The position numbers and the translations under genes were made by a program. The notes below the pieces were generated by a model. It was given only the letters and a program-made list of their open reading frames with translations, was not told the DNA's origin and did no database searches. Positions 2,430 through 62,579 of a stretch of DNA of 64,000 bases are shown piece by piece (within the stretch, counting starts at the first letter, position 1; every line of letters starts with the position of its first letter). This DNA comes from Dromiciops gliroides. Taxonomy: Eukaryota > Chordata > Mammalia > Microbiotheria > Microbiotheriidae. The stretch is taken from positions 411,164,169 through 411,228,168 of the forward strand of contig NC_057862.1 of assembly GCF_019393635.1 (NCBI RefSeq), in the 5' to 3' direction.

Positions 2430-2690
2430 ATGAATTGTGATCTGTCTCAGAAGCTGAGAGTTGGAAGGGATCTCAGGAGGTATCTCCATCCAGTCCCTAC
2501 ACAAATGAATGGAATCCCCACTAAAACCCACTTGAAGGCATCCCTGCTGTGACATACTACACTGTAAAATACTCAAGTTGTCTGAGTTGCAATTATGGAT
2601 CTCATCCAGGAACATTTTAGAATTTGAAATATATTGATATAGCCTATAAAAGCTGGTCTGGGAGAATAGAGACACACTGTAGCCCTGAAG
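2430..2690 (+). repeat. CR1/L3-like LINE remnant
   Basis: Landmark order GAGTTGGAAGGGATCTCAGG, then CATCCAGTCCCTACAC, then CTTGAAGGCATCCCTGCTGTGAC resembles 3' regions of CR1/L3 LINEs. No open frame remains. Confidence 0.5.
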
Positions 2691-2859
2691 ACCTCTAAAG
2701 AGCAGGGACTTACCATTTCTTAAGGAAGCCCATACATTGATGAGATCACTTGAGAACTTTAGTAGACTCCTCCTTGGCCATGGTCATTTGGGAGACCTTA
2801 CTTTAGTGTTTTCTAGTATGCAAAGTGACTTCACACACATGAGCATCTTTGAGGTAAAA

Positions 2860-3073
2860 TAAGCACTGTGGGTTAAATACAATTCTTGGACTCAGAAAGA
2901 CCTGTGTTTCAATCCTGTTTCAGACGCTTACTAAGCTTTGTGACCTGGATAAGTCACTCTCTGTGCCTCAGTTCCCTCATCTGAAAAATTAGGGTGATAA
3001 TAGCACTTAACTCACAGAGTCATTATAAGGATGAAATTAACATGTAAAGTGCTTTTCAAAATGTAAAGCACTC
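2860..3073 (+). repeat. MIR, left part (split by L1)
   Basis: Sense MIR: AAGACCTGTGTTTCAATCC, CTTTGTGACCTGGATAAGTC, CTGTGCCTCAGTTCCCTC and its 3' end. It is interrupted at 3073 by an L1 and resumes at 3998 (AAGCACTCTATAAATCCTAG). Confidence 0.7.
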
Positions 3074-3997
3074 CTAAATCACTATTGATTAGAGAAATGC
3101 AAATTAAAACAACTCTGAGGTACCATCTCACACCTATCAGATTGACTAATATGACAAAAAAGGAAAATAATAAATGTTGGAGAAACTGGAAATATCGGAA
3201 TACTAATGCATTGTTGGTGAAGTTGTGAGCTGATCCAACCATTCTAGAAAGCAATTTGGAACTATGCCCAAAGGGCTATGGGACTGTACATACCCCTTGA
3301 CCCAGTAGTACTACTATTAGGTCTGTATCCCAAAGAGATCATGAAAAAGGGAGAAGGACCCACGTGTACAAAAAATATTTATAGCAGCTCTCTTTGTGGT
3401 GGCAAAGAACTGGAAATTGAGGGAATGTCCATCAATTGGGAAATTGCTGAACAAGTTGTGGTATTTGAATGCAATGCAATATTATTGTGCTGTAAGAAAT
3501 GATGAACAGGCAGATTTCAGAAAAACCTGGAAAGACTTAAGTGATGCTGAGTGAAGTAAGCAGAACCAGGAGAATACTGTACATAGTAACAGCAACAATT
3601 GTGTGATGTTCAACTGTGATAGATTTAGCTCTTCTTAGCGTGTAATAATCCAAGACAATTCCAAAGAACTCATGATGGAAAATGTTCTCCACATCCAGAA
3701 AAAAGAACTGTGGATTCTGAATGCAGATTGAACCATATTGTTTCTACCTTTTGACTGTTTTTTTTTCTTTTTTGAGATTTTCCCCTTGTATTCTGACTCT
3801 TCTTTCATAATATAATCAATGCAGAAATAAGTTTGATGTGATCGTACATATATAACCTGTATCACATTGCTGTCTTGGGGAAGGAGGAGGGAAAGGAGGG
3901 TGGGAGAAAAATTTGGAACTAAAAATCTTATGAAAAAAATGTTGAAAACTATATCTAAATGTAACTGAAAAATAATATAATACTTTTATGATTAAAA
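3074..3997 (+). mobile_element. 5'-truncated L1 (ORF2 C-terminus + 3' UTR)
   Basis: About 924 bp of L1 in the sense direction. Translation between 3280 and 3530 gives decayed ORF2 C-terminal text (IYSSSLCGGKELEIEG, then MSINWEIAEQ; the intact copy at 58 kb has [22 protein letters not shown]). The 3' UTR (AGCAGAACCAGGAGAATACTG) and its G-rich GGAGGAGGGAAAGGAGG stretch follow. It is flanked by the 11-bp target duplication GTAAAGCACTC (3063-3073 and 3998-4008) inside a MIR. Old copy with frameshifts. Confidence 0.85.
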
Positions 3998-4039
3998 GTA
4001 AAGCACTCTATAAATCCTAGCCATCATCATCACCATCAC

Positions 4040-4600
4040 CTTTGTGTATGAATAGATCTCTTCTGATTATAGAACCAAAAGCCAGAGGGTTAGAATTGTC
4101 TGTACTCATTCTGAGTTAAGCTGAGTGGAAAGCAAGGGAAGAGAGAACTTTCTTCCTGAATATAATTCACCATAGAGTTGTTGAACACCATGAGGGTACC
4201 ATGACTGTTTATTTTCTATTATCTCTTGAAATTGTCTCTGAGTCCTTATGTTGATAAAATGCTCAGGTATTTTAGAATTGACTTATATTTTTTCCATGTA
4301 AGTCTCAAGGAAAAGTGTGATTCCAGCTTGTTATCTAGTGAAATTCTAACTTGAATTAGATACATTTACAGAAAGAAATAACTAGATGGAAAAAAACCCA
4401 GCAACAGGAGGAGGCAAGTTCAGTACCTAATTCCCAACCTTTTCTTCCTCCTCCTTGATTTCCTACTCCTTTTTCTCCTTCTCCTCCTCCTCCTATTCCT
4501 TCTCCTCCTTATTAATTTCTTTTCTCTCTGTCTCTGCATCTGTTTCTGTCTTTCTCTGTATCTCTTCAGGTATTTGATAAAGAAATGTATTCAATCAATA
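4040..4600. other. No gene; pyrimidine-rich tract near 4440-4560
   Basis: Unclassified DNA. A CTCCTCCTC/TTCTCC-rich low-complexity block lies at about 4438-4560. Confidence 0.5.
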
Positions 4601-25788: not shown

Positions 25789-25917
25789 GGCAGTTAGGTG
25801 GCACAGTGGATAGATGGAATCAGGAAGATCCAAGTTCAAATCTGGTCTCATTCATTTACTAGCTGTGTGACTTTGGACAAGTCACTTCACCTCCCTTTGC
25901 CTGGTTTTCTTCATCTG
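25789..25917 (+). repeat. CORE-SINE, left part (split by L1)
   Basis: GGCAGTTAGGTGGCACAGTG, CTAGCTGTGTGACTTTGG, TTTCTTCATCTGT. Resumes at about 27558 (TTCTTAATCTGTAAAATGG). The head and core are diverged. Confidence 0.8.
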
Positions 25918-27557
25918 TTTAAGGATTTTATTTCTTCTTCAGTTAACCTGGGCAGTTTGTATTTTTGTAAATATTCATCCATTTCATTTAGATTGTCAAA
26001 TTTATTGGCATACAGTCATGTATCCATTTTGACCTTATTTTAGTATAAGGTGTAAGATGTTGGTCTATGCCTAATTTCTGCCATACTATCTTCCAGTTTT
26101 CCCAGCAGTTTTTGTCAAATACTGAGTTCCTATCCCAGAAGCTGGAGTCTTTGGGTTTATCAAACACTATATTACTAGTGTCATTTATTACTGCATTTCC
26201 TGAGCCTAGCCTATTCCATTGATCTACCACTCTCTTTTTTAGCCAGTACCACATAGTTTTGATGACTGCTGCTTTATAGTAAAGCTCCAGGTTTGGTACT
26301 GCTAACCCACCTTCCTGTGAATTTTTTTTCATCATTTCCCTGGATATTCTTGATTTTTTGTTTTTCCAGATGAATTTTGTTATTATTTTTTCTAGCTGTA
26401 TAAAATAATTTTTAGGTAGTCTGATTGGTATGGCACTGAATAAGTAAATTAATTTAGGCAGTATTGTCATTTTTACTATATTAGATCTGCCTATCCATGA
26501 ACAACTGATATCTTTCCAATTATTTAGATCTGATTTGATTTGTGTGAAGAGTGTTTGGTAGTTGTGTTCATAGAGTTCCTGGGTTTGTCTTGGCAAGTAG
26601 ACTCCCAAGTATTTTATATTATCTACTGTTACTTTAAATGGAATTTCTCTTTCTATCTCTTGCTGCTGGACTTTGTTGGTCATGTATAGAAATGCTGATG
26701 ATTTATGTGGATTTATTTCATATCCTGCTACTTTGCTAAAGTTGTTAATTGTTTCAAGTAATTTTTGAGTTGATTCTCTAGGATTCTTTAAGTATACCAT
26801 CATATCATCTGCAAAGAGTGATAGTTTTGTTTCCTCCTTGCCCATTCTAATTCCTTTAATTCCTTTCTCTTCTCTGATTGCTAAAGCTAACATATCTAGG
26901 ACAATATTAAATAATAGGGGTGATAATGGACATCCCTGTTTCACCCCTGATCTTATTGGGAAGGCCTCTAATTTATCTCCATTGCATATAATACTTGCTG
27001 ATGGCTTTAGGTAGATACTGTTTATTATTCTGAGGAAAGCTCCACCTATTCCTAAACTCTCTAGTGTTTTTATTAGGAATGGGTGCTGTACTTTGTCAAA
27101 AGCTTTCTCTGCATCTGTTGAGATAATCATATGATTTTGGTTGGTTTTCTTATTGATATGGTTGATTATGTTAATAGTTTTTCTAATGTTGAACCAGCTC
27201 TGCATTCCTGGTATAAATCCCACCTGGTCATAGTGTATTATCCTGGTGATCACTTGCTATAATCTCCTTGCTAATATCTTATTTAAGATTTTAGCATCAA
27301 TATTCATTAGGGAAATTGGTCTATAATTTTCTTTCTCTGTTTTTGCTTTGCCTGGTTTTGGTATCACCACCATATTTGTGTCATAAAATGAATTTGGTAG
27401 AACTCCTTCACCTATTTTTCCAAATAATTTGTATAATATTGGAATTAATTGTTCTTTAAATGTTTGGTAAAATTCACCTGGCCCTGGGGATTTTTTCTTA
27501 GGGAGTTCATTAATGGCTTGTTCAATTTCGTTTTCTAATATGGGTTTATTTAAGGAT
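25918..27557 (-). mobile_element. Circularly permuted L1 ORF2 fragment
   Basis: Two L1 pieces, same orientation, in the wrong order. 25918-26013 matches 60418-60514 of the ORF2-intact copy; from 26014 to 27557 it matches 58873-60426. The start and end points of the source interval therefore meet (overlap TTTAAGGAT, about 9 bases), as if a circle covering 58873-60514 had been opened at about 60420. No 3' UTR and no poly(A). Flanks GGTTTTCTTCATCTGT (25903-25918) and GTTTTTCTTAATCTGT (27558-27573) agree at 14 of 16 and the host SINE is collinear across, so the block was inserted as a unit. Confidence 0.85.
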
Positions 27558-27595
27558 GTTTTTCTTAATCTGTAAAATGGGGATGATAATGGCAC
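25988..27595 (-). pseudogene. L1 ORF2 fragment, RT domain
   Basis: The minus-strand frame 25988-27253 (421 codons) carries the reverse transcriptase region: [33 protein letters not shown], catalytic FADDMMVYL, and the thumb region [22 protein letters not shown] second frame upstream (27257-27557) has [10 protein letters not shown] and [24 protein letters not shown]; a stop in LQQVI (position 27259 area) and a 12-bp deletion around SPGP-GEFYQ separate it from the intact copy. The last residues CMPINLTI come from the permuted piece read in another frame. No endonuclease or C-terminal domain; cannot act. Closely similar in protein to the 58-62 kb copy, so the insertion is young relative to its neighbours. 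Confidence 0.9.
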
Positions 27596-27690
27596 CTACC
27601 TTACAGGGTTGTTTTGAGAATAAATGGAGATTCATATTTGTAGACTACTTTGCAAACAAAAATCTATATAACTGCTAGTTACCACTACTA
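27558..27690 (+). repeat. CORE-SINE/MIR, right part
   Basis: Continuation of 25789-25917: CTGTAAAATGGGGATGATAA, CCTACCTTACAGGGTTG, GTAGACTACTTTGC. Confidence 0.75.
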
Positions 27691-29465: not shown

Positions 29466-30550
29466 ATCTTAAAATTCAGTTTTAAAGTATTTTTTAGTGA
29501 GAAGAGGATAAATGGGGGGGGGGGAATAGGATGGAGGGAAATATATAATCATAACTGTGAATGTGAATGGGATAAAATCCATAAAATAAAAGCAAATAAC
29601 AGAATGAATTAGAAACCAAACAATATGTTGTTTATAGGAGACATACTTGAAACAGAAAGATACACACAAAAATTAAAAGAAGAGTTTGTAGCAGAAACTG
29701 TTATGCTTCAGCTGAGGTTAAAAACAAGAGGGATAGCAATCATGATTTCAGACAAAGTAAAAGCAAAATAAAATAAAGGTCTAATTAAAAGAGATAGGCA
29801 GGGAAGCTGCATTTTGCTAAAAGGTACCATAGACAATGAAGTAATATCAGTACTAAAATATATGTACACCAAATGACATAGCATCTAAATTCCTAAAGAA
29901 AAAGGTAAATGACACATAGGAGGTAGTAGACACTAAAGCTATATAAGTGAGAGACCTCAAATCTCCCCTCTCAGATCTAGATAAATCTAACCATAAAATA
30001 ATTAAGAAAGAAGTTAAGGAGATGATTCCAATTTTAGAAAAGTGAGATATGAAAGTGGAGAAAATTGAATGGAGATAGAAAGGAGCATACCTTTTTCTCA
30101 GCACATGGCACATAACAAACAAAAATCTTAAGATTATCTCAACAGATGCATAAAAAGCTTTTGACAAAACATAACGCTCATTCCTATTAAAAACACTAGA
30201 AAGCATAGGAATAAATGAATCTTTCCTTAAAATGATAAGTAATATCTATCTAAAACATTCAGTAAGTATTCTCTATAATGGGAATAAGCTAGAAACCTTC
30301 CCAACTAGATCAGGGGTTAAGCAAGAATGCCCATTTTCACCACTATTATTCAATGTTGTACTGAAAATGTTAGCTAAAGCAATAAGAGAAGAAAACTAAA
30401 TTGAAGGAAATAGAATAGACAGTGAAGAAATAAAACTATCATTCTTTGCAGATGATATGATGGTATATTTAGAGACTACAAGAGAATAAAAAAATAACTG
30501 AAACAATGAACAGCTGTAGCAAAATTGCAGGATATAAAATAACCTCCATA

Positions 30551-36894: not shown

Positions 36895-37120
36895 GAAATG
36901 CACTAAAAGCACTGAACTTGGAATCAGGAAGATCTGGGTTCAAAACTGTCATTATACACTTATTCACCATGCAGTCTTAGACAAATCATTCAACCTTATT
37001 TTTCCTTCAGTTTGTTCATCTGTAAAATGGGGACAATTATTCCTATTGTACTTGCTTTACAAGGTTGTTGTGAAGAACAAATGAGAATTGGATGTAAATT
37101 GCTTTGTAAAATATTAAAGG
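36895..37120 (+). repeat. MIR/CORE-SINE
   Basis: AAAAGCACTGAACTTGGAATC, GATCTGGGTTCAAAACTG, CATCTGTAAAATGGGGAC, TACAAGGTTGTTGTGAAG. Confidence 0.75.
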
Positions 37121-49063: not shown

Positions 49064-49914
49064 TTTTATATGGTATGTTGTCTCATTATTGTCATTGTCT
49101 TGGATATAGTTATTGATTGTTTCTATGATTTGTTGTTTGACCTATTCATTCTTTAGAATGAAATTATTTAGTTTCCAATTGATTTTCATTCCACTTTTCT
49201 CTGGCTCTTTCTTACATGTAATTTTTATTGCATCATGATCTGAGAAGGATTCATTTACTATTTCTGCCTTTCTACATTTGACTATGATGTTTTTGTGCCC
49301 TAATACATGGTCAATTTTTAAAAATGTGCCATGTACTGCTGAGAAAAAGGTATATTCCTTTCTATCCCCATTCAATTTTATCCACACATCTATCATGTCT
49401 AACTTTTCTAGTAATCTATTCACCTCTTTCACTTCTTTCTTATTTATTTTTCAGCTAGATTTATCTAATTCTGAGAGGGGGAGATTCAGATCCCCCACTA
49501 GTATAGTATTACTGTCTAATTCCTCTTGTAACTCATTTAACTTCTCTAAGAATCTGGATGCTATACCACTTGGCATATACATATTTAATATTTATATTAC
49601 TTCATTATCTATAGTACCATTTAGCAAGATGTAGTTTCCTTCCTTATCTCTTTTAATGAGATCTATTTTTGCCTGTGCTTTGTCTGTGATAAGGATTGCT
49701 ACCCCTGCTTTTTTTACTTTAGCTGAAGCATAATATATTCAGCTCCAGCCTTTTATCTTTACTCTGTGTGTATCTCTCTGCTTCAAATGTGTTTCTTGTA
49801 AACAGCATATTGTGGGATTCTGGTTTTTAATTCACTCTGCAATTCGCTTCTGTTTTATAGAAGAGTTCATCCTATTCACATTCACAGTTATTGTTACTGT
49901 CTATTCCCCTCCAT
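49064..49914 (-). pseudogene. L1 ORF2 endonuclease domain only
   Basis: N-terminal ORF2 region starting at ATG 49912-49914. Best frame 49142-49432: [50 protein letters not shown], so the catalytic D/H of SDH and the KIDH aspartate are readable. In-frame breaks upstream (for example the TGA at the SSQK position near 49453, where the young copy has TGG) inactivate it. No RT follows. Confidence 0.85.
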
Positions 49915-50489
49915 TCTATTTACCCCCTTTGTAATTTTTCCTCCTTCTTTCACCCTATTCCTCCTCACCGACGTTTTGCTTCTTACCCCAGTCTCACCCA
50001 ATCTGCCCTCCCTTTTTATCGCCCCCTCCCTTTTCTTTACCCGTTTCTCCCTTGCTTTTGTCCTCCCTTCTGTCAGTCCCCCCTTTCCCTTCCCCTTTTT
50101 ACTTCCCTAAAGAATGAGCTAAGTTTCTGTATCCCAATGAACATATATGTTATTCCCTCTTTGAATCAAACCTAATGAGAGTAGGGTTGAAACAATGTTC
50201 GCCCCTCCTTTCTTTCCCTCTATTGTAATAGGCTTTTTTTCACCTCTTCATATGATGTAATTCACCCCATTCCACCTCCCCTTTCCTCTTCTCCCCATAG
50301 ACTCCCTTTTTAACCCCTTAATTTTCTTTGTATCAACACATCAAAGACAATTTATATTTATACCCTCTGTGTAAAGTCCTTCTCTCTGCCCAAATACTTT
50401 TAAAATTCTTAAGAGTTATGAGAATTATCTTCCCGTGTAGAGATGTAAACAGTTTAACCTGAGTAACTTTTTTCCCTCCTTTTACCTTT
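49915..50489 (-). other. Long purine-rich L1 inter-ORF spacer
   Basis: About 575 bases between the ORF1 stop and the ORF2 ATG, G/A-rich on the minus strand (C/T blocks such as CCCCCTCCCTTTTCTTTACCC on plus). The young copy has a matching spacer of about 583 bases (61764-62346). Confidence 0.75.
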
Positions 50490-51584
50490 TTAAACTTCTC
50501 TTGAGTCTTGTATGTTAAGATTGAATTTTCTATTCAGTTCTGGTCTTTTCATCAGGAAAGATTGAAAGTCCCCAATGTCATTGAACGTCCATTTTTTCCT
50601 CTGAAAAAGAATGTGCAGTTTTGCTGGGTAATAGATTCTCAGCTGCAATCCAAGCTCTTTTGCCTTCCGGAATATCATATTCCAAGCCTTGAGGTCCTTT
50701 AATGTTGAAGCTGCCAGGTCCTGAGCAGTCCTGACTCTGGCTCCATGATATTTAAATTGCTTCTTTCTGGCTGCTTGGAGTATTTTCTCCTTCACCCGAT
50801 AATTCTGGAATTTGGCTACAATATTCCTTGGGGTTTTCGTTTTGGGATCTCTTTCAAGAGGTGATCGGTGGATTCTTTCAATGATGATTTTATCCTCTAA
50901 TTCTATAATATCAGGGCAGTTCCCCTTAATAATTTCCTGGAATGTGGTGTCTAGATTCTTTTTCTGATCATAGCTTTCAGGCAGTCCAGTGATTCTCAAA
51001 TTGTCTCTCCTGCATCTGTTTTCCAGATCAGTTGTCTTTCCAATTAGGTATTTCACATTTTCTTCTATTCTTTCATTCTTTCGATTCTGCTTGACTAATT
51101 CCTGGTGTCTCATGGATTCCTTATCTTCCAACTGTCCAATTCTAATTTTTAAGGCATTGTTTTCTTCAGTGAGATTATGCACCTTTTTTTCCATTTGGCC
51201 AGATGAATTTTTTAAGGCATTGTTTTCTTCAATGAGATTATGCACCTTTTTTTCCCATTTGGCCAGATGAATTTTTTAAGGAATTGTTTTCTGCAGTCAA
51301 TCTTTGTGCTTCCTTTTCCAAGCTGCTGATTCTTTTTTCATAGTTTTCTTGTTTTGCTTTCATTTCTCTCCCCATTTTTTTTCTACCTCTCTCAATTGAT
51401 TTTTAAAATCCTTTTTGAGCTCTTCCAGGAAGGCTTTTTGTTCTTGAGTCCAATTCACCTTCCCTCTTGAGCCTTCACATGTAGGTAATTCGAGGGTATT
51501 GTCCTCATCTGAGTTTGTGTTTGCCTCTTCCCTGTTGATACAGAAGCTCTCAATGGAGAGGGCTCTTTTTTGCTTCTTACTCAT
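50490..51584 (-). pseudogene. L1 ORF1 (RNA-binding coiled-coil protein), frameshifted
   Basis: Start MSKKQKRALSIESFC at 51584, stop before 50490; about 365 codons. N-terminal piece 51360-51584 (acidic, then QEQKAFLEELKKDFKNQL). Coiled coil with heptad-like units VHNLTEENNALK, LIEENNALK at 51120-51300. RRM-like region LRITGLPESYDQKKNLDTTF, IIIERIHRSPLERDP, IVAKFQNYRVKEKIL; C-terminal domain LQLRIYYPAKLHILFQ, then FNDIGDFQSFLMKRPEL. The frame breaks near 51246-51360, partly by a 1-base change in a C/T run between coiled-coil units. The normal role is binding L1 RNA as a trimer. Confidence 0.9.
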
Positions 51585-57452: not shown

Positions 57453-57482
57453 CATTAAAGGTTTTTTTTTTTGTTTTTTTTT

Positions 57483-57932
57483 TGAGATATTTTATTTTTT
57501 CCGTTACATGTAAAGATAGTTCTCAACTTTTGTTTATACATGCTTTACAATTTCAGATTTTTCTCCCTCCCTCCCTCCCCTCCCTCCCCCCTCCCCTAGA
57601 CAGCAGGTAATCTGATATAGGTTATATCTATATATATCTATACATATACATATAGATATATATACACACACATATATATACACATAATAACATTAATCCT
57701 ATTTCTGCATTAATCCTGTTACAAGAGAAAGAATCAGAGCAGTGATGCAAAACCTCAAAATAGAAAAAAAAAAACAACAGCACCCAAAACAAAAGAAATA
57801 ATATGGTTCAATCAGCATCTATACTCCACAGTTCTTTCTTTCTTTCTTTTTCTTGGATTTGGAGATCCTCTTCTATCATGAGTTCCCTGGAACTCTTCTG
57901 TACCATTGCATTGGTGAGAAGAATATAGTCCA
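57483..57932 (-). other. L1 3' UTR with G-run tract
   Basis: On the minus strand at 57563-57597 runs of three or more G's alternate with A (plus strand CTCCCTCCCTCCC, CCCCTCCC), a G-quadruplex-capable motif known from L1 3' UTRs of several mammals. AT/AC simple repeat at 57625-57686. Confidence 0.75.
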
Positions 57933-60900
57933 TCACAGTAGGTCAACACTCAATGTTGATGATACTGTGTACAATGTTCTTCTGGTTCTGCTCATCTCAC
58001 TCATCATCAGCTCACGTAAGACCCTCCAGGTTTCTCTGAACTCTTCCTGCTCATCATTTCTTACAGCACAATAGTATTCCATTGTATTCATATACCACAA
58101 CTTGTCCAGCCATTCCCCAATTGATGGGCACCCCCTCAACTTCCAATTCCTTGCTACCACGTAAAGAGCAGCTATAAATATTTTTGTACATGTGGGTCCC
58201 TTTCCCCCTTCCATGATTTCTTTGGGCAAAAGACCTAAAAGTGGGATTGCTGGGTCAAAGGGTATGCACAGCTTTATCGCCCTTTGGGCATAATTCCAAA
58301 TTGCTCTCCAGAATGGTTGCATCAGCTCACAGCTCCACCAACAATGCATTAGTGTTCCAATTTTCCCACAGCCTCTCCAACATTTATTATCTTCCTTTTT
58401 TGTCATTTTAGCCAATCTGATAGGTGTCAGGTGGTACCTCAGAGTTGTTTTAATTTGCATCTCTCTAATCATTAGAGATTTAGAGCATTTTTTCATATGG
58501 GAATAGATAGCTTTGGTTTCTTCATCAGAAAACTGCCTGTTCATATCCTTTGACCATTTCTCAATTGGGGAATGACTTGGATTCTTATAAATTTGATTTA
58601 ATTCCCTATATATTTTAGAGATGAGGCCTTTATCAGAAGCACTGGCCTCAAAAATTGTTTCCCAGCTTTCTGCCTCCCTTCTAATTTTGGATGCATTGCT
58701 TCTGTTTGTACAAAAATTTTTTAATTTAATATAATCAAAATCATCCACTTTGCATTTTATAATATACTCTATCTCATGTTTGGTCAAAAACTGTTCTCCT
58801 TTCCAAAGATCTGATAGGTACACTATTCCTTTCTCTCCTAATTTACCTATGGTATCACCTCTTATGTCTAAATCATGTATCCATTTTGACCTTATTTTAG
58901 TATAAGGTGTAAGATGTTGGTCTAAGCCTAATTTCTGCCATACTATCTTCCAGTTTTCCCAGCAGTTTTTGTCAAATACTGAGTTCCTATCCCAGAAGCT
59001 GGAGTCTTTGGGTTTATCAAACACTACATTACTAGTGTCATTTACTACTGCATTTCCTGAGCCTAGCCTATTCCATTGATCTACCACTCTATTTTTTAGC
59101 CAGTACCAGATAGTTTTGATGACTGCCGCTTTATAGTAAAGCTCCAGGTTTGGTACCGCTAACCCACCTTCCTGTGAATTTTTTTTCATTATTTCCCTGG
59201 ATATTCTTGATTTTTTGTTTTTCCAGATGAATTTTGTTATTATTTTTTCTAGCTGTATAAAATAATTTTTAGGTAGCCTGATTGGTATGGCACTGAATAA
59301 GTAAATTAATTTAGGCAGTATTGTCATTTTTACTATATTAGCTCTGCCTATCCATGAGCAATTGATATCTTTCCAATTATTTAGATCTGATTTGATTTGT
59401 GTGAAGAGTGTTTGGTAGTTGTGTTCATAGAGTTCCTGGGTTTGTCTTGGCAAGTAGACTCCCAAGTATTTTATATTACCTACCATTACTTTAAATGGAA
59501 TTTCTCTTTCTATCTCTTGCTGCTGGACTTTGTTGGTCATGTATAGAAATGCTGATGATTTATGTGGATTTATTTTATATCCTGCTACTTTGCTAAAGTT
59601 GTTAATTGTTTCAAGTAATTTTTGACTTGATTCTCGAGGATTCCTTAAGTATACCATCATATCATCTGCAAAGAGTGATAGTTTTGTTTCCTCCTTGCCT
59701 ATTCTAATTCCTTTAATTCCTTTCTCTTCTCTGATTGCTAAAGCTAACATTTCTAGGACAATATTAAATAATAGGGGTGATAATGGACATCCCTGTTTCA
59801 CCCCTGATCTTATTGGGAAGGCCTCTAATTTATCTCCATTGCATATAATACTTGCTGATGGCTTTAGGTAGATACTGTTTATTATTCTAAGGAAAGCTCC
59901 CCCTATTCCTAAACTCTCTAGTGTTTTTATTAGGAATGGGTGCTGTACTTTGTCAAAAGCTTTCTCTGCATCTATTGAGATAATCATATGATTTTGGTTG
60001 GTTTTCTTATTGATGTGGTTGATTATGTTAATAGTTTTCCTAATGTTGAACCAGCCCTGCATTCCTGGTATAAATCCCACCTGGTCATAGTGTATTATCC
60101 TGGTGATCACTTGCTGTAATCTCCTTGCTAATATCTTATTTAAGATTTTAGCATCAATATTCATTAGGGAGATTGGTCTATAATTTTCTTTCTCTGTTTT
60201 TGCTTTGCCTGGTTTTGGTATCACCACCATATTTGTGTCATAAAACGAATTTGGTAGAACTCCTTCACCTATTTTTCCAAATAATTTGTATAATATTGGA
60301 ATTAATTGTTCTTTAAATGTTTGGTAAAATTCACCCGTAAACCCATCTGGCCCTGGGGATTTTTTCTTAGGGAGTTCATTAATAGCTTGTTCAATTTCTT
60401 TTTCTAATATGGGTTTATTTAAGGATTTTATTTCCTCTTCAGTTAACCTGGGCAGTTTGTATTTTTGTAAATATTCATCCATTTCATTTAGATTGTCAAA
60501 TTTATTGGCATACAGTTGGGCAAAATATTTCCTAATTATTGCTTTAATTTCCACTTCATTGGTGGTAACATCACCCTTTTCATTTTTGATACTGGTAATT
60601 TGGTTTTCTTCTTTCTTTTTTTTAATCAAATTAACCAGTATTTTATCTATTTTATTGGTTTTTTCATAAAACCAGCTCTTAGTTTTATTGATTAGTTCTA
60701 TAGTTTTTTTGCTTTCAATCTTATTGATTTCTCCTTTAATTTTCAGGATCTCTAATTTAGTGTCTAATTGGGGATTTCTAATTTGTTCTTTTTCTAGCTT
60801 TTTAAGTTGCATTCCCAATTCATTAATCTCCTCTTTCTCTTTTTTATTCATGTAAGCATTTAGAGCTATAAATTTTCCCCTAAGCACTGCTTTGGCTGCA

Positions 60901-61763
60901 TCCCATAGATTTTGGTATGTTGTCTCATTATTGTCATTCTCTTGGATAAAGTTATTGATTGTTTCTATGATTTCTTGTTTGGCCCATTCATTCTTTAGAA
61001 TGAAATTATTTAGTTTCCAATTGATTTTCATTCTACTTTTCCCTGGCTCTTTCTTACATGTAATTTTTATTGCATCATGATCTGAGAAGGATGCATTTAC
61101 TATTTCTGCCTTTCTACATTTGACTATGATGTTTTTGTGCCCTAATACATGGTCAATTTTTGAAAATGTGCCATGTACTGCTGAGAAAAAGGTATATTCC
61201 TTTCTATCCCCATTCAATTTTCTCCAGACATCTATCATGTCTAACTTTTCTAGTAATCTATTCACCTCTTTCACTTCTTTCTTATTTATTTTTTGGCTAG
61301 ATTTATCTAATTCTGAGAGGGGGAGATTCAGATCCCCCACTAGTATAGTATTACTATCTAATTCCTCTTGTAACTCATTTAACTTCTCCTCTAAGAACTT
61401 GGATGCTATACCACTTGGCGCATACATATTCAATATTGATATTACTTCATTATCTATAGTACCTTTAAGTAAGATGTAATTTCCTTCCTTATCTCTTTTA
61501 ATGAGATCTATTTTTGCCTGCACTTTGTCTGAGATAAGGATTGCTACCCCTGCCTTTTTTACTTTAGCTGAGGCATAATATATTCTGCTCCAGCCTTTTA
61601 CCTTTACTCTGTGTGTATCTCTCTGCTTCAAATGTGTTTCTTGTAAACAGCATATTGTAGGGTTCTGGTTTTTAATCCACTCTGCAATTCGCTTCCGTTT
61701 TATAGCAGAGTTCATCCCATTCACATTCACAGTTATTATTACTGACTGTCTATTCCCCTCCAT
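57933..61763 (-). CDS. L1 ORF2 protein (endonuclease / reverse transcriptase)
   Basis: Uninterrupted frame of about 1276 codons from the ATG at 61763 ([20 protein letters not shown]), chosen because it aligns with the usual L1 ORF2 start; the frame stays open 36 codons upstream. The usual length is about 1275. APE-type endonuclease, residues 1 to about 240: N13 in NVNG, E42 in LQETH, D and N in [34 protein letters not shown]. Reverse transcriptase about 500-770: [29 protein letters not shown], catalytic [10 protein letters not shown]-terminal Cys-rich knuckle [18 protein letters not shown]. Acts on its own and Alu/SINE-type RNAs by target-primed reverse transcription. Every key residue I can check is present, but there is no promoter or complete ORF1 here, so expression would need a neighbouring promoter. 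Confidence 0.95.
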
Positions 61764-62346
61764 TCTATTTACCCCCTTTGTACTTTTCCCCCCTTCTTTC
61801 ACCCTATTCCTCCTCACCGACGTTTTACTTCTTACCCCTGCCTCCCCCAATCTGCCCTCCCTTTTTATCACCCCCCTCTCTTTTCTTTACCCTTTTCTCC
61901 CTTGCTTTTGTCCTCCCTTCTCAGTCCCCCCCTTTCCCTTCCCCTTTTGTTTCCCTAAAGAGTGAGTTAAGTTTCTTTATCCCAATGAACGTATATGTTA
62001 TTCCCTCTTTGAGTCAAATCTAATGAGAATAGGGTTGAAACCATGTTCCCCCCTCCTTTCTTTCCCTCTATTATAATAGGTTTTTTTCCACCTCTTCATA
62101 TGATATAATTCATCCCATTCCACCTCCCCTTTCCTCTCCTCCCCATAGACTCCCTTTTTATCTTCTTAATTCTTTTGTATCATCACATCAAAGACAATTT
62201 ATATTTATACCCTCTATATAAAGTCCTTCTCTCTGCCCAAATACATTTACAGTTCTTAAGAGTTATGAGTATTATCTTCCTGTGTAGGGATATAAACAGT
62301 TTAACCTAATAGGGTAACTTTTTTTTTTCCCCCTCTGTTTACCTTT
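61764..62346 (-). other. Long purine-rich L1 inter-ORF spacer
   Basis: About 583 bases with G/A-rich blocks on the minus strand. Human L1 has only about 63 bases here. Partly open in the ORF2 frame (to 61871). Confidence 0.8.
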
Positions 62347-62538
62347 TTAAACTTCTCTTGAGTCTTGTATGTTGAGATCAAATTTTCTATTCAGTTCTGG
62401 TCTTTTCACCAGGAAAGATTGAAAGTCCCCAATGTCATTAAATGTCCATCTTTTCCCCTGAAAGAAAATGCACATTTTTGCTGGGTAATAGATTCTCGGC
62501 TGCAATCCAATCTCCTTTGCCTTCCGGAATATCATATT
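62347..62538 (-). pseudogene. L1 ORF1 C-terminal remnant
   Basis: Last 62 codons of ORF1 (MIFRKAKEIGLQPRIYYPA, RWTFNDIGDFQSFLVKRPEL, LNIQDSREV), cut by the 5' truncation of the element. Nearly the same as the C-terminus at 50490-50680, confirming both belong to one L1 lineage. Confidence 0.93.
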
Positions 62539-62579
62539 CCCCCATTAAAGGTTTTTAAAAGCAGTTAGTACTGTGGTAT

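What the first reader, a model, noticed from the sequence alone, without database searches (positions are those of the whole stretch)
25918..27557. Circularly permuted L1 ORF2 fragment inserted with a target duplication
Seen: the block equals two pieces of L1 ORF2 in one orientation but swapped order (25918-26013 = 60418-60514; 26014-27557 = 58873-60426 of the intact copy). The outer ends meet at the same source point with about 9 shared bases, so all of 58873-60514 is present once, as if a closed circle had been opened at 60420. It has no 3' UTR or poly(A), yet is flanked by a ~16-bp imperfect duplication inside a collinear SINE. Twin priming would invert one piece; this is not inverted. Inference: integration or reverse transcription of a circular L1 template (extrachromosomal DNA or circular RNA), or a template switch that happened to end where it began.
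Basis: partly seen in the sequence, partly recalled or inferred. Interest (0 to 1): 0.82.

Follow-up and report, generated by a model that had tools for sequence, protein, structure and literature searches.

The report
Permuted L1 fragment, copied full circle
A 1.6-kb piece of a jumping gene (L1) sits in this genome with its two halves in swapped order and its outer ends meeting at one source point, as if the copying enzyme had gone once round a closed or end-to-start-joined template; it is a dead fossil, but a clean trace of an unusual copying route.

Summary
An L1 ORF2 fragment of 1639 bp (25919-27557) lies between 15/16-bp imperfect target duplications inside a collinear SINE. In L1 sense (minus strand) it reads source 60426→58874, then 60515→60419. 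Both pieces face the same way in swapped order, and the outer ends overlap by 8-9 bp, so a source circle of 1643 bp is present once plus 8 bp, minus a 12-bp deletion. The internal joint shares one base, carries no extra bases and has no splice signature. It occurs once in the 3.3-Gb own genome at up to 3 mismatches. Human ORF2p and 4 of 4 other fetched loci covering both pieces have the ordinary order. No poly(A), the duplication length and the nick side (CTGT/AAAA) fit tailless target-primed reverse transcription. Best reading: the L1 machinery copied one RNA fragment for one turn, the RNA being a ligated circle or a linear fragment jumped from its 5' end back to its 3' end; sequence cannot separate these. 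Insertion of a DNA circle, or a two-template jump ending by chance where it began, remain open. It is a single inert fossil: interesting, not a new system.

The parts
25789..25903 (+). Left part of the host SINE
   Evidence: Matches many SINE copies in the window; the name marsupial SINE is recalled, not from a call
25904..25918 (+). Left copy of the target duplication GTTTTCTTCATCTGT; its 3' end is the inferred reverse-transcription primer (nick CTGT/AAAA)
   Evidence: chance test
25919..26015 (-). L1 ORF2 piece 1 = source 60419-60515 (copied first in the inferred order)
26016..26016 (.). Circle joint: one shared base (T), present at both source ends (60516 and 58873); no extra bases, no AG/GT splice signature
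   Evidence: unique in the genome at up to 3 mismatches
26017..27557 (-). L1 ORF2 piece 2 = source 58874-60426 (copied second)
27477..27478 (.). Point of the 12-bp deletion (source 60335-60346)
   Evidence: intact in 5 of 5 copies that cover the site (reference, L003, L004, L007, L008), but the same deletion is found at 7 other places in the genome
27550..27557 (.). TTAAGGAT, the 8-bp source segment (60419-60426) present twice; the other copy is 25919-25926
27558..27573 (+). Right copy of the target duplication GTTTTTCTTAATCTGT
27574..27655 (+). Right part of the host SINE, collinear with the left part once insert and one duplication are left out (right edge approximate)
57467..62539 (-). Reference L1 copy, ordinary order, 5'-truncated, open frame 57933-61871 (scripts used 57453-62538)

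Best explanation
This is a tailless L1 insertion made by target-primed reverse transcription in which the L1 enzyme copied one ~1.64-kb fragment of L1 ORF2 RNA for one full turn plus about 8 bases. Inferred steps: (1) the + strand of a SINE is nicked at CTGT/AAAA; (2) its 3' end primes on the RNA at source position 60419, with almost no pairing; (3) cDNA runs to 60515, where it passes directly to 58873/58874, because the RNA is a ligated circle or because the enzyme jumps from the 5' end of the fragment to the 3' end of the same fragment; (4) it continues to 60426 and stops where the RNA is already paired to, or has been removed after copying into, the start of its own cDNA; (5) second-strand cutting about 15 bp away gives the target duplication. 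Shown: the order, overlap, joint, duplication, empty-site continuity and uniqueness of the joint. Inferred: RNA as the template, closure of the template, and the reason for stopping.
For: Swapped same-orientation pieces and 8-9-bp outer overlap. Target duplication of L1-like length, 20 of 400,000 by chance. The nick lies on the strand that this L1 orientation requires, 4 of 6 bases of TTTT/AA (consensus as stated in PMC2912911, passages). No poly(A). Of 7 other L1 loci fetched, the 4 that cover both pieces (L003, L004, L007, L008) have the ordinary order, and the other 3 are single collinear pieces across the 58873 point only. Precedents: human ORF2p core performs rolling-circle reverse transcription on circular RNA of about 1 kb in vitro (PMC11331410, passages) and template jumping (PMC10830420, passages); tailless L1-mediated copies with target duplications exist in therians (PMC5322556, passages and one section); circRNA-derived pseudogenes mostly without poly(A), 39 of 42 for circRFWD2, are reported (review PMC5345220, passages); ligation of L1 RNA to U6 before insertion is cited in PMC13247085 and PMC8857657 and named as one of two possibilities in PMC13174262 (passages).
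Against: Primer-template pairing at the start is no better than at other L1 positions: 4 of 8, a score reached by 2441 of 4900 positions. The nick site departs from the consensus at 2 of 6 bases. No splice signature at the joint, and pairing between the source flanks of the joint is not unusual: -19.0 kcal/mol against a mean of -22.4, 68% of 300 random pairs as strong or stronger; so nothing in the sequence explains why a circle should form there. ORF2p rolls round several times in vitro, so stopping after one turn needs an extra assumption. Against the jump version: PMC8857657 suggests template jumping may not be needed physiologically and that L1 chimeras in mobility assays come from ligated RNA (passage). 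One example only.
Confidence: 0.6

Rival explanations
1. Two different L1 RNA fragments were copied in succession (ordinary template jump or RNA-RNA ligation), and the second copy happened to stop at the point where the first began.
For: Template jumping and RNA ligation are documented for or proposed for L1. Non-canonical insertions are not rare: 15.73% of human mobile-element insertions (L1, Alu and SVA together) in PMC12350158, of which 66.4% lack poly(A) and 52.8% have internal rearrangements (passages).
Against: Needs a coincidence within 8 bp: 17 of 3666 (0.5%) or 17 of 1643 (1%) positions (arithmetic). The finding was picked because it is striking, so this is not a clean probability. 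Similarity of target and source at that point, which could force the coincidence, is not unusual: 26-31% of neighbourhoods are as good.
Confidence: 0.18
2. A small circular DNA (excised L1 fragment or circular L1 cDNA) was opened and inserted at a staggered break.
For: LINE DNA circles form in a yeast model (Zorro3), and small dispersed circular DNA of mammalian cells contains L1s (PMC3510499, outline and Discussion read). A staggered opening with fill-in would give the 8-bp end overlap; one-base homology at the joint fits end joining.
Against: Needs two independent staggered cuts (8 bp in the circle, about 15 bp in the target). The Zorro3 circles have poly(A) joints, unlike this one. The T/AAAA nick on the strand expected for L1 target priming is then a coincidence.
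Confidence: 0.12
3. Rearrangement after insertion (tandem duplication plus deletions, or two successive insertions).
For: Some L1 copies in this genome carry internal deletions (window 29518-30542; L032 and L033).
Against: The target duplications abut the present outer ends exactly; later deletions would have to stop at both duplications. A second insertion would leave its own duplication at the joint; none is seen.
Confidence: 0.05
4. Assembly error, either a false joint or a collapsed multi-turn tandem array.
For: Young L1 copies (about 97-98% identical) can mislead assemblers; a multi-turn product would look like this if collapsed.
Against: Assembly of 3.3 Gb in 17 contigs, no N in the window, matching target duplications on both sides, and 16 private substitutions that show a real distinct copy.
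Confidence: 0.05

Closest known systems
Tailless retropseudogenes / 3'-truncated L1 copies (Noll 2015, PMC5322556, passages and one section; Schmitz 2004, seen only as a reference)
   Same: No poly(A), internal start on the RNA, target duplication, L1 machinery, therian mammals
   Different: As far as I saw, those are collinear; here the order is swapped and the ends meet. The A-rich complementarity reported for that class is not seen here.
circRNA-derived pseudogenes (circRFWD2 and others; primary paper not held, seen through review PMC5345220, passages)
   Same: Retrocopy carrying a back-joined order, mostly no poly(A)
   Different: Those come from spliced host exons; here L1 RNA itself, with no splice signature at the joint
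Twin-primed (5'-inverted) L1 insertions
   Same: Two L1 segments between one target duplication
   Different: Twin priming inverts one segment; here both have the same orientation and the order is swapped
Zorro3 circular LINE products (PMC3510499, Discussion read)
   Same: Circular form of an L1-clade element
   Different: DNA episomes with poly(A) joints in yeast, not integrated permuted copies
U6/L1 and other chimeric L1 insertions (PMC13174262, passages)
   Same: Non-contiguous RNA segments joined in the same orientation by ligation or template switch
   Different: Both segments here are from L1 ORF2, and the joined order closes on itself

Membership tests
[quoted passage not shown]
   15/16 bp, one substitution and one indel
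[quoted passage not shown]
   CTGT/AAAA, 4 of 6 bases, correct strand
[quoted passage not shown]
   L1 sequence joins the target directly
Tailless retropseudogene class | 3'-truncated, no tail, target duplication | tested here: met
Tailless retropseudogene class | Complementarity of target primer and RNA at the internal start | tested here: not met
   4 of 8 bases pair; 2441 of 4900 L1 positions reach that
Twin-primed L1 | One segment inverted | tested here: not met
   both pieces on the same strand
Back-spliced circRNA pseudogene | AG before and GT after the joined ends in the source | tested here: not met
   source sense flanks ...GCCCA before the 5' point and TTTAG after the 3' point
Back-spliced circRNA pseudogene | Swapped order with a single back-joint | tested here: met
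Insertion from a circular template (RNA or DNA) | Outer ends adjacent or slightly overlapping in the source | tested here: met
   8-9 bp overlap
Insertion from a circular template (RNA or DNA) | Existence of the circle in cells | not testable with these tools
   needs RNA or circular-DNA sequencing of the germline

The most novel reading that the evidence does not exclude
L1 ORF2 RNA fragments are ligated into true RNA circles in the germline of this animal without the spliceosome, and the L1 enzyme uses its own RNA circles as insertion templates, leaving permuted, tailless copies that mark this route.
Probability: 0.33. Interest if true: 0.72.

Novelty: new variant of a known kind. Interest (0 to 1): 0.5.

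Why it matters
Human ORF2p can copy circular RNA in vitro (PMC11331410, passages), and pseudogenes from host RNA circles are reported (PMC5345220, passages), but whether L1 uses circles of its own RNA in the germline appears open from what I saw. A clean genomic case defines a signature (swapped same-strand pieces, ends overlapping by a few bases, target duplication, no tail) that can be counted genome-wide. If such ends meet more often than chance, closed-template copying is a real route; if not, plain template jumping suffices.

Tried and rejected
Subfamily with permuted order: rejected. The joint occurs once in the genome at up to 3 mismatches. Of the 7 other L1 loci fetched by similarity (the first 7 of 39 other places listed), 4 cover both pieces and all 4 have the ordinary order; the other 3 reach only the 58873 side and are collinear there.

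Back-splicing: rejected, no splice signature at the joint. Flank pairing to bring the circle ends together: nothing unusual.

Target similarity as the reason why both ends lie at one source point: the T-rich stretch near the breakpoint looked alike by eye, but 26-31% of L1 neighbourhoods are as similar to the target.

12-bp deletion as a tag of the source copy: the pattern across it is found at 8 places in the genome at up to 3 mismatches, the insert included. In the other seven loci the longest L1 piece is 72-94% identical to the reference L1, and where they cover the insert they are no closer to it than the reference is; so the deletion looks recurrent and does not identify the source.

Base rate: in 21 fetched genome stretches (20 at random positions, of 160 planned; L009 chosen at an L1) plus the window, 273,901 bases, 43 L1 pieces of at least 50 bp (E up to 1e-8) gave 3 abutting pairs: 2 collinear, 1 swapped (this one), 0 inverted. 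Too small to estimate a rate.

Literature: no title on circularly permuted L1 insertions among those listed by searches (25 of 173 papers listed; 30 of 155; 20 of 49; 3 of 3; 5 of 5; 10 of 80; 12 of 12; 10 of 11; 3 of 3). I saw listings, outlines, passages and a few sections, no whole paper, and most subscription papers are not held. The primary circRNA-pseudogene paper and the U6/L1 ligation paper were not held.

Full report
What is there. The region 25904-27573 of the + strand reads: SINE; GTTTTCTTCATCTGT (25904-25918); L1 97 bp (25919-26015); one shared base (26016); L1 1541 bp (26017-27557); GTTTTTCTTAATCTGT (27558-27573); rest of the SINE. The L1 parts are antisense on +, so sense is the minus strand. 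Against the L1 copy at about 57467-62539 the small piece equals 60419-60515 (97 of 98 bases identical including the shared base) and the large piece equals 58874-60426, 97.9% identical over 1542 compared positions and lacking 12 bp (60335-60346). Both pieces have the same orientation and the order is swapped. The two outer ends overlap in the source by TTAAGGAT (60419-60426), 8 bp, or 9 with an ambiguous T. The insert is 1639 bp = 1643 (circle) + 8 - 12.

Is the reference order the normal one? Yes. The reference copy has an open 1312-codon frame that aligns in one stretch, residues 39-1305 of the query, with human ORF2p (8uw3_A). Of seven other L1 loci fetched with the start of the insert as query (L002-L008), the four that cover both pieces (L003, L004, L007, L008) show the ordinary order; L002, L005 and L006 reach only the 58873 side and are collinear there. 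In one search, 39 of 39 other scored places match the query only from the joint on (40 of 1367 candidates were scored). The joint pattern (33 bases) occurs once in the 3.3-Gb genome with up to 3 mismatches, and its reversed control does not occur.

Is it an insertion? Leaving out the insert and one duplication restores a SINE that aligns across the joint with other SINE copies in the window, for example 14367-14182 and 36919-37083. The duplication is unlikely by chance: 20 of 400,000 random boundary pairs reached 13 of 14 with a slack of 3 bases either way. Against eight L1 relatives, three of which cover only part, the large piece has 16 private substitutions (the call lists 18 private differences, of which I dropped two alignment-edge gaps). 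That means a young insertion, a few million years at typical mammalian rates (rate recalled, not from a call). The genome size and the six contigs whose lengths I saw (764, 702, 671, 497, 303, 281 Mb) resemble the 2n=14 dasyurid marsupial set; this is recalled and unconfirmed.

How it most likely arose. With sense on the minus strand, target-primed reverse transcription must nick the + strand and extend it rightward as antisense cDNA. The left duplication ends CTGT and the SINE continues AAAATGG, so the nick is CTGT/AAAA, 4 of 6 bases of the L1 consensus TTTT/AA (stated in PMC2912911, passages). Copying then ran 60419→60515, passed to 58873/58874 without extra bases, and ran up to 60426, eight bases past its own start. 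A single closed template explains why the end coincides with the start: the enzyme returns to RNA that is already paired with, or has been degraded after copying into, its own first cDNA (inference). A linear fragment with ends at 60515 and 58873, and a jump from its 5' end to its 3' end, predicts the same product. Sequence alone cannot separate the two. Human ORF2p core can do both relevant reactions in vitro: rolling-circle reverse transcription on circular RNA of about 1 kb (PMC11331410, passages) and template jumping (PMC10830420, passages). PMC8857657 (passages) doubts that jumping matters in life and points to RNA ligation as the source of L1 chimeras, which leans towards the ligated circle.

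Points against. The primer pairs poorly with the RNA at the start (4 of 8, reached by 2441 of 4900 L1 positions), unlike the A-rich complementarity described for tailless retropseudogenes (PMC5322556, passages). The joint carries no splice signature, and the flanks of the circle ends show no unusual pairing, so why a circle would close there is unexplained. In vitro the enzyme makes several turns, while this copy has one. It is a single case among 43 L1 pieces examined in 273,901 bases, which gives no rate.

Rivals. A jump between two RNAs with a chance end costs about 0.5-1% (17 of 3666 or of 1643 positions, arithmetic), tempered by the fact that the finding was chosen for being striking; non-canonical insertions as a class are common (15.73% of human mobile-element insertions, L1, Alu and SVA together, in PMC12350158, passages; its authors allow that some arose by later rearrangement). 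A DNA circle would need a second staggered cut, and the LINE circles known from yeast have poly(A) joints (PMC3510499, Discussion). Later rearrangement would have to stop exactly at both duplications. Assembly error is unlikely given long contigs and no N in the window, although a collapsed multi-turn array is not strictly excluded.

Place among known things. It works like a tailless L1 insertion and has the order signature of a circRNA-derived pseudogene, but it is neither a back-spliced product (tested, not met) nor twin-primed (tested, not met), and the primer complementarity of the tailless class was tested and not met. The combination, L1's own sequence copied in closed order with ends meeting, was not among the titles listed by searches. 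I call it a new variant of a known kind. It encodes nothing useful: the circle length 1643 is not a multiple of three, so the frame is lost at the joint, and the large piece has one stop and a 4-codon loss in its ORF2 frame.

Noticed in passing
window 27477/27478 and seven other places in the own genome (L032-L038): The same 12-bp deletion in the ORF2 stretch coding for PGPDGFT occurs at 8 places at up to 3 mismatches, in copies whose longest L1 piece is 72-94% identical to the reference L1, so it looks recurrent rather than inherited.
   Followed up: partly
window 29518-30542: An older L1 copy in the opposite orientation has a sharp internal deletion: source 61166 joined to 60003 at 30113/30114, collinear.
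   Followed up: no
window 57467-62539: 5'-truncated L1 with an open 1312-codon frame, flanked by CCCCATTAAAGGTTTTT on both sides (57450 and 62540).
   Followed up: no
L032 and L033: Two L1 copies carrying the 12-bp deletion match the reference in three pieces each (for example L033 reference sense positions 1328 joined to 1861 and 2449 to 4572); cryptic splicing or jumps possible, not tested.
   Followed up: no
window 49071-50683: L1 5' portion (source 60913-62540, 92.6% identical); no other L1 piece was matched next to it in that call.
   Followed up: no
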